From contig MEUE01000001.1 of NCBI GenBank assembly GCA_001771585.1, positions 412,744 to 476,743 of the forward strand: 64,000 nucleotides of DNA. The letters are read 5' to 3'. This DNA comes from a candidate division WOR-1 bacterium RIFOXYB2_FULL_46_45. Lineage in GTDB: Bacteria; Margulisbacteria; WOR-1; XYC2-FULL-46-14. Under the pieces are notes generated by a model. It was not told the origin of the DNA and did no database searches. It was given only the letters and a program-made list of their open reading frames with translations. Position numbers and translations under genes: made by a program. Shown in pieces: positions 53,262 through 53,938 of the stretch; the first letter of the stretch is position 1, and every line of letters starts with the position of its first letter.

Positions 53262-53386
53262 GGCGGCATAATTGCTGGGAGTATGAAGAGAAGACTCGAA
53301 TTTCTATCACAAATCAATAATCCCGAATGAATTCGAATGAAAGGGTCTCAAATAAAAGTCCCAAATCCTCGAATTTAATCTCGAAG
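53262..53386 (+). repeat. Left end of GxxExxY-carrying unit
   Basis: Recurs in inverted orientation at about 55208-55334; contains CGAATTTCTATCACAAATCAA (53297-53317). Confidence 0.9.
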
Positions 53387-53861
53387 GAGGAAATAAAATG
53401 GAAGAAAAAATTGTGTACAAAGAACTTAGCTATAGAATCATGGGAATTCTTTTTGATGTCCACAATACCATGGGGGGCGGCTATCAAGAAAAATATTACC
53501 AAAAAGCCATTAAATTATCCCTTGTTGAACAAAAAATCCCCTTCCTTGAACAAGTCCGGACAGACCTTGTCGTGCACGGGCAAATAATTGGCAGATATTA
53601 TATTGACTTTGTGATTGATCACAAGGTTGTGCTGGAAATTAAGTCAAGAATAAATTTCTCAAAAAGAGATATTATACAAGTGTTGGGATATCTAAGGCAA
53701 AGCAACCTGAATCTTGGCATTTTGGCTTCCTTTTCAACAGACGGCTTAAAATACAAGCGTATTTTGAAAGGGTTCGAGAATCGATTCGAGCATTCGAGTC
53801 CTTAATTCGGGACACGCCCTGTTCGCATTGATTCGAGAGGTTGATTCGTGATAGAAATTCG
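53297..53861 (+). mobile_element. Putative TIR-bounded unit carrying a GxxExxY gene
   Basis: 21-nt terminal inverted repeats with one mismatch (53297-53317 / 53841-53861); direct repeat GGCGGCATAATTGCTGGG outside at 53262-53279 and 53890-53907; internally deleted copy at about 55103-55334. Confidence 0.65.
53398..53805 (+). CDS. GxxExxY protein (PDDEXK_3-like nuclease fold)
   Basis: GGGYQEKYYQKAI (GxxExxY); GRYYIDFVIDHKVVLEIKS (D..ExK); SD gaaggagga. Confidence 0.88.
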   Translation: MEEKIVYKELSYRIMGILFDVHNTMGGGYQEKYYQKAIKLSLVEQKIPFLEQVRTDLVVHGQIIGRYYIDFVIDHKVVLEIKSRINFSKRDIIQVLGYLRQSNLNLGILASFSTDGLKYKRILKGFENRFEHSSP

Positions 53862-53870
53862 GGACTATTT
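53764..53870 (+). repeat. Right end of GxxExxY-carrying unit (includes last ~40 bp of the gene)
   Basis: ttgaaagggttcgagaatcgattcgagcattcgagtccttaattcggga... recurs inverted at about 55103-55208. Confidence 0.9.
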
Positions 53871-53938
53871 CCCCCATATTCCCAAAATTGGCGGCATAAT
53901 TGCTGGGTATATGTTAAAATTTGTAAGGAGAATAAAAA

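What the first reader, a model, noticed from the sequence alone, without database searches (positions are those of the whole stretch)
53262..53908. GxxExxY (PDDEXK-like) gene packaged in a repeat-bounded, transposon-like unit
The gene at 53398-53805 is flanked by CGAATTTCTATCAC(A/G)AATCAA in inverted orientation (53297-53317, 53841-53861), dense TTCGAAT/CGAAT motifs, and an outer direct repeat GGCGGCATAATTGCTGGG (53262-53279, 53890-53907). GxxExxY genes are common in candidate-phylum genomes with unknown function. Ends that recur without the gene (next finding) suggest the protein acts on those ends, i.e. a small undescribed mobile element.
Basis: partly seen in the sequence, partly recalled or inferred. 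Interest (0 to 1): 0.82.

Follow-up and report, generated by a model that had tools for sequence, protein, structure and literature searches.

The report
Nuclease gene inside word-repeat palindrome family
A small gene of unknown function, widespread in uncultured bacteria, turns out to sit almost always between mirror-image arrays of one short DNA word, and gene-less copies of the same arrays are scattered through the genomes that carry it, so it is probably the enzyme that spreads and maintains a previously undescribed family of miniature mobile DNA.

Summary
The gene at 53398-53805 is a GxxExxY protein (TIGR04256/PF13366) lying in the apex of a palindrome. The outer 'direct repeat' is misread: its two copies are sigma-54 promoters. 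The arms are inverted arrays of a 7-base word, CNCRAAT. The own genome holds one gene copy of this family and about 15 gene-less copies.

The pattern is general. Of 72 GxxExxY loci from many candidate phyla, 83% have significant inverted flanks, against 0.8% of shifted controls. The arms share a core, CNRAT, with a locus-specific two-base prefix that tracks the protein tree. In one Patescibacterial order, genomes with the gene hold a median of 14 arrays; genomes without it hold 1 (P = 1e-7). Base-pair changes show no RNA-strand bias (138 vs 137). The same operon slot is occupied in some species and empty in others. The protein is predicted to be a minimal Cas4/lambda-exonuclease-like nuclease with an intact active site.

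Best reading: a system that works like REPIN-RAYT, with an unrelated PD-(D/E)XK nuclease in place of the Y1 transposase. Association, dispersal and presence/absence are shown. Enzyme action on the arrays and actual transposition are inferred.

The parts
   Evidence: GGGCGGCATAATTGCTGG, 2 mismatches to TGGCGGCAAAATTGCTGG; 37 genomic sites vs 3 reversed-control sites
53292..53385 (+). left arm of the element: array of heptamers CNCRAAT (CTCGAAT, CACAAAT, CCCGAAT, CTCAAAT, CCCAAAT, CTCGAAT, CTCGAA)
   Evidence: homologous left arms at further genomic sites
53398..53805 (+). GxxExxY protein gene, minimal PD-(D/E)XK nuclease with QxxxY; its last ~13 codons are encoded by the right arm
   Evidence: TIGR04256 1.3e-27, PF13366 9e-27; E31/Y34, D70, E80, K82, Q94, Y98 conserved in 23 homologues; AF2 pLDDT 89.8, best PDB fold matches SSO0001/Cas4 and lambda exonuclease
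53770..53866 (+). right arm: inverted array ATTYGNG, ending ATTCGGGACT
   Evidence: TGGCGGCATAATTGCTGG, 1 mismatch; activator gene starts at 53939
55100..55304 (-). gene-less copy of the element (both arms, apex TCTCGAAGCTTGAAAGGG instead of the gene)
   Evidence: 95% identical to the left end and 93% to the right end; single-strand DNA fold z = -4.5
55318..55335 (-). sigma-54 site at the 5' side of the gene-less copy
   Evidence: exact TGGCGGCAAAATTGCTGG
55019..55099 (+). 81-bp 3' end of the activator gene, first copy of a direct duplication flanking the gene-less element
   Evidence: 81-bp direct repeat, z = 36.8
55352..55432 (+). second copy of the same 81 bp on the other side of the gene-less element (overlaps the patatin gene end)
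   Evidence: sequence

Best explanation
The unit is the gene-bearing copy of a family of miniature mobile palindromes. Each palindrome is two inverted arrays of a short word (core CNRAT plus a two-base prefix, usually constant within a locus). One or a few copies per genome carry, in the apex, a gene for a minimal Cas4/lambda-exonuclease-type PD-(D/E)XK nuclease, GxxExxY. The many other copies are gene-less and probably depend on that protein in trans. Proposed mechanism: the nuclease recognises its own word array, most likely when the palindrome is single-stranded and folded (lagging strand, or incoming DNA during competence), trims or nicks at the array edge, and the excised hairpin or its copy is joined into intergenic DNA by host repair without a fixed target duplication. 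The way of working resembles REPIN-RAYT, but the enzyme is unrelated. Shown: gene/array linkage, gene-less dispersed copies, co-occurrence across genomes, word-protein co-variation, occupied and empty slots, no sign of RNA-helix selection. Inferred: nuclease activity, recognition of the array, the excision and insertion chemistry, and the single-strand step.
For: Flanks of GxxExxY genes are inverted repeats: z>5 at 60 of 72 loci (83%) against 2 of 242 controls (0.8%). CNRAT is about 5-fold enriched directly upstream (2.49 vs ~0.45 per 50 nt) and its complement ATYNG downstream (2.95), each on one side only. The prefix is the same in both arms at 45 of 61 loci (shuffled mean 9.8, maximum 20) and follows the protein tree (15 changes; shuffled mean 25.8, minimum 22). 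One genome (G061) has two GxxExxY genes with two different words, AACGAAT and TACGAAT. Gene-less arrays: about 15 in the own genome; up to 125 TACNAAT array matches per Patescibacterial genome with 0 for the reversed control; an 81-bp unit recurs at two unrelated sites in G061. Co-occurrence in 119 genomes of one order: median 14 vs 1 arrays, P=1e-7. Presence/absence: the slot before a VirB4-like gene is filled in L178/L193/L230 and empty in L203/L211; the recO/activator slot of the sister genus lacks this element. Active site invariant, Cas4/lambda-exonuclease fold. No RNA-strand bias: GU-compatible changes 138 vs 137 and 69 vs 79.
Against: No movement was observed. Target duplications are absent at 60 loci; only two own-genome gene-less copies show a convincing one. 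14 of 98 genomes without a detected gene hold 10 or more arrays, and G169 and G075 have the gene but 0-1 ACNAAT arrays. 12 of 72 loci lack a significant inverted flank. Some loci sit at conserved positions in related species, which also fits vertical retention. Nuclease action is inferred from fold and residues only.
Confidence: 0.55

Rival explanations
1. IVS-like RNA element: the arms act as an RNA hairpin cut by RNase III, as in S23-bearing intervening sequences, and the protein is a passenger.
For: S23 genes in this and related genomes also sit between word palindromes (59% of loci vs 2.7% of controls). The Coxiella IVS has tandem heptamers GACAGAT before its S23 ORF (PMC4990558). Some GxxExxY units sit inside operons.
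Against: Changes between arms show no G-U bias for the transcribed strand: 138 vs 137 over 60 loci, 69 vs 79 in own copies. Variable word positions do not covary. No reverse transcriptase in the genome for an RNA route. Own copies often lie between convergent genes.
Confidence: 0.13
2. Host-domesticated binding sites: the arrays are regulatory, nucleoid or repair (Chi-like) sites read by the GxxExxY protein, and dispersal is by recombination rather than transposition.
For: Own gene-less copies are intergenic and the word is linked to the protein lineage. The fold resembles recombination exonucleases. Tandem expansion of array units.
Against: Sporadic gene distribution (22 of 119 genomes); copy numbers from about 1 to 177 array matches within one order; the gene usually lies inside its own array; empty slots.
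Confidence: 0.2
3. Ordinary transposon relic: GxxExxY is a passenger captured between ends of a DDE or Y1 element whose transposase is elsewhere.
For: The genome has a Y1/RAYT-like gene under the same sigma-54 promoter type (L116). Gene-less copies look like MITEs.
Against: GxxExxY is between such ends in many phyla. The word prefix tracks this protein. No general target duplication.
Confidence: 0.08

Closest known systems
REPIN-RAYT systems (REP doublets plus REP-associated tyrosine transposase; PMC3116915, PMC2817692, PMC3733652)
   Same: Single resident gene flanked by extragenic palindromes; many dispersed gene-less hairpin doublets and some singlets; repeat type tied to its own protein lineage; intergenic, often between convergent genes; more than one protein/repeat pair per genome.
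   Different: Enzyme is a Cas4-like PD-(D/E)XK nuclease, not an HUH/Y1 transposase. Ends are arrays of 4-8 degenerate 7-base words per arm instead of one 20-40 bp palindrome with a GTAG/CGTC tag.
S23 / 23S rRNA intervening sequences (IVS; PMC4990558)
   Same: Single small ORF in the loop of a long inverted repeat; heptamer repeats; locus-specific words at S23 loci in the same genomes.
   Different: Protein unrelated (four-helix bundle). Here most copies are gene-less and intergenic, and the core CNRAT is shared across phyla. No RNA-strand signature.
IS200/IS605 elements
   Same: Hairpin-bounded, no target duplication (from general knowledge of the family); single-strand intermediates, proposed here by analogy.
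   Different: No TnpA/TnpB in the unit; ends are long word arrays; enzyme from another fold class.
Cas4 / lambda exonuclease / MGME1 nucleases
   Same: Predicted fold and PD-(D/E)XK plus QxxxY residues.
   Different: Much smaller (about 125-135 aa) and encoded inside a repeat family; TM-scores only 0.4-0.5.

Membership tests
GxxExxY protein family (TIGR04256 / PF13366) | Score above curated cut-off; GxxExxY and PD-(D/E)XK residues | tested here: met
   96.5 bits vs 35 and 94.2 vs 22; residues invariant in 23 homologues
REPIN-RAYT | Dispersed extragenic palindromic doublets in many copies | tested here: met
   about 15 gene-less copies in own genome; up to 125 array matches in G061
REPIN-RAYT | Repeats found at both flanks of the resident gene | tested here: met
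   83% vs 0.8% of controls; prefix identical in both arms 45/61
REPIN-RAYT | Resident gene is a Y1 (HUH) tyrosine transposase | tested here: not met
   PD-(D/E)XK nuclease by family, residues and fold
Classical DDE transposon with MITEs | Fixed-length target-site duplication | tested here: not met
   0 of 60 loci z>4 vs 2% of controls; duplications shorter than about 10 bp were not testable this way; 81 bp and 18 bp at two own copies only
Classical DDE transposon with MITEs | DDE transposase in the autonomous copy | tested here: not met
   the only recognised gene in the unit is GxxExxY
23S rRNA IVS (S23) | S23 four-helix-bundle ORF in a 23S rRNA helix | tested here: not met
   ORF is GxxExxY; no rRNA match in the window
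23S rRNA IVS (S23) | Function as RNA hairpin | tested here: inconclusive
   no strand bias of GU-compatible changes argues against it; direct processing could not be tested
Retroelement (DGR, retron, group II intron) | Reverse transcriptase | tested here: not met
   no PF00078 match in the genome
Mobile element of any kind | Occupied and empty orthologous sites | tested here: met
   slot before VirB4-like gene filled in L178/L193/L230, empty in L203/L211; recO/activator slot differs in sister genus
Mobile element of any kind | Movement observed | not testable with these tools
   needs population sequencing or an assay

The most novel reading that the evidence does not exclude
GxxExxY proteins define a new class of DNA mobility enzyme: minimal Cas4-like nucleases that excise and disperse palindromic arrays of their own recognition word, forming a large REP-like mobile system of candidate-phyla genomes, with a two-base prefix that sets which protein reads which array.
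Probability: 0.4. Interest if true: 0.9.

Novelty: new variant of a known kind. Interest (0 to 1): 0.78.

Why it matters
GxxExxY is a common protein family of unknown function in Patescibacteria and other candidate phyla; only two open-access papers name it, the one opened only in passing. This gives it a concrete DNA partner (CNRAT word arrays), a predicted activity and a direct biochemical test. It would also show that REP-like genome-wide palindromes have arisen around an enzyme unrelated to Y1 transposases, and explain many of the intergenic palindromes of very small genomes.

Tried and rejected
Outer direct repeat as element end: rejected, it is a sigma-54 promoter motif. RNA-hairpin selection: not supported, equal GU-plus/GU-minus counts and no covariation at word positions. 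Retro-mobility: no RT. General target-site duplication: not found. Sigma-54 promoter as a general feature of GxxExxY units: not found upstream of 11 other Margulisbacterial loci, L171 or the second own-genome gene. Fixed 7-nt periodicity of arms across loci: no peak in a simple autocorrelation, because spacers vary between words. PADLOC, PHROGs and PDB sequence searches gave no informative relative. Literature searches for GxxExxY, PF13366 and TIGR04256 elements found no description (open-access text only).

Full report
What is there. The window comes from a 1.70-Mb, 4-contig genome whose GxxExxY relatives are named Margulisbacteria/Saganbacteria. Between recO (52704-53237, minus) and a sigma-54 activator gene (53939-55096, plus) lies a GxxExxY gene, 53398-53805. 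It stands in the apex of a palindrome whose arms (53292-53385; about 53770-53866) are arrays of heptamers CNCRAAT on the left and ATTYGNG on the right. The last codons of the gene are written by the right arm itself.

What the outer repeats are. The 31-nt direct repeat is a sigma-54 promoter sequence. TGGCGGCAAAATTGCTGG with up to 3 mismatches occurs 37 times in the genome, its reversed control 3 times. Genes downstream, assigned by reading their translations rather than by a family search, include ComEA, YraN/ComM, SSB, TatD, PilB, S23 and ORF6N proteins and the activator itself: a competence-like regulon. One copy stands upstream of the GxxExxY gene, the other of the activator. Other Margulisbacterial GxxExxY loci lack such a site, so it is local.

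Gene-less copies. A copy without the gene lies at 55100-55304 and about 14 more are dispersed in the genome, in two subfamilies, mostly intergenic and often between convergent genes. Subfamily-A copies share the same apical junction where the gene would be, as expected for a lineage spreading without the gene. The genome has only three GxxExxY genes. The second has its own CNCNAAT arrays, the third AACGGAT arrays.

DNA or RNA. If the arms were kept as an RNA helix, differences between them should favour G-U over A-C on the transcribed strand. They do not: 69 vs 79 in own copies and 138 vs 137 over 60 loci. The two variable positions of the word do not covary between arms (19 and 24 matches of 59, expected 24 and 29). 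What is conserved is the word, in inverted orientation. The single strand still folds much better than shuffles (z -4.5).

Generality. A genome scan gave 75 GxxExxY loci, mainly Patescibacteria and Margulisbacteria, plus Scalindua, Elusimicrobia and others (contamination of individual bins is possible). Flank against reverse-complemented flank gives z>5 at 83% of 72 loci and 0.8% of 242 shifted controls. A second set from one order gave 53% of 17 loci vs 0 of 33 controls; 11 further loci could not be placed by the script. Words share the core CNRAT (TACGAAT, CACGAAT, CGCTAAT, AACGAAT, TGCGAAT, CCCGGAT), enriched about 5-fold on the expected side only. The first two letters are locus-specific: both arms agree at 45 of 61 loci (chance about 10), and they follow the protein tree (15 changes, shuffles at least 22; the tree is weakly resolved). 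In the own genome the second letter of the word varies, so the prefix rule is looser there. G061 has two paralogues with two different words.

Dispersal and co-occurrence. Searches for three successive TACNAAT words find up to 125 matches per genome and none for the reversed pattern. In G061 the unit is a 33-bp arm of four words (spacers 1, 3, 1), single or head-to-head as a 64-bp palindrome; two examples checked for reading frames lie between one gene's stop and the next gene's start. An 81-bp version recurs at two unrelated sites. In 119 genomes of that order, 21 carry the gene above cut-off and hold a median of 14 arrays; 98 do not and hold a median of 1 (P = 1e-7). Draft genomes and phylogenetic non-independence weaken this number but not its direction.

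Occupied and empty sites. The slot between a ~220-aa gene and a VirB4/TraG-like ATPase gene is filled by GxxExxY units in L178, L193 and L230 (404-495 bp), but is 69 bp in L203 and absent in L211, where the genes overlap. Other positions include a slot upstream of fusA (L183, L184). The recO/activator slot in the sister genus lacks this element and holds another word palindrome; a third genome has an ORF6N gene there. The sister genus has no member of this repeat family. Long target duplications are not general. One gene-less own copy is flanked by an 81-bp duplication and another by an 18-bp one.

The protein. E31, Y34, D70, E80, K82, Q94 and Y98 are invariant in 23 homologues, a PD-(D/E)XK site with QxxxY. 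The AlphaFold2 model (pLDDT 89.8) matches SSO0001 (E 8e-5) and lambda exonuclease (4.8e-4) best, with moderate TM-scores of 0.4-0.5 and some tRNA-splicing endonuclease hits. That SSO0001 is a Cas4 single-strand exonuclease is general knowledge, not tested here.

Interpretation. Linkage of one small nuclease gene to a dispersed, word-specific palindrome family, with gene-less copies in excess and protein/word co-variation, is the architecture of REPIN-RAYT systems (PMC3116915, PMC3733652). The enzyme is different, so it is not a member. I propose that GxxExxY recognises and cuts its own array, probably in single-stranded form, and drives spread without fixed target duplication. The activity, the substrate form and the movement are inferred, not shown.

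Noticed in passing
G000 sites (e.g. window 53261, 53889, 55318; loci L100-L129): A sigma-54 regulon of about 30 sites covers comEA, comM/yraN, ssb, tatD, pilB, ORF6N, S23, GxxExxY and a Y1/RAYT-like gene: natural competence in this lineage looks sigma-54 controlled, and several single-gene repeat-bounded units have joined that regulon.
   Followed up: partly
L090-L099 (own genome) and L252-L280 (relatives): S23 four-helix-bundle genes also sit between palindromes made of a locus-specific short word (TATCAGG, TTAGGGTC, CAAATCC, GCGTGAA); 59% of 39 loci z>5 vs 2.7% of controls. Several lie next to tRNA genes.
   Followed up: partly
window 55019-55099 and 55352-55432: 81-bp duplication of the activator gene's 3' end flanks the gene-less copy and leaves both convergent genes intact; 18-bp exact duplication at another copy (L063).
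   Followed up: partly
window 53939-55096: The sigma-54 activator has receiver and AAA+ domains but no C-terminal DNA-binding domain; both copies of its duplicated 3' end carry the stop, so this seems native.
   Followed up: no
L178, L193, L202, L203, L208, L211, L224, L230, L186: GxxExxY units with different words recur in or beside the VirB4-like operon of many Patescibacteria: a possible insertion hotspot.
   Followed up: partly
L131 (G001) and L134 (G003): The recO/activator slot of relatives holds other word palindromes (CTATAGG/CCTATA; CGAGCGAAGTCGAGG with an ORF6N gene), so the slot itself may be a hotspot for this wider class.
   Followed up: partly
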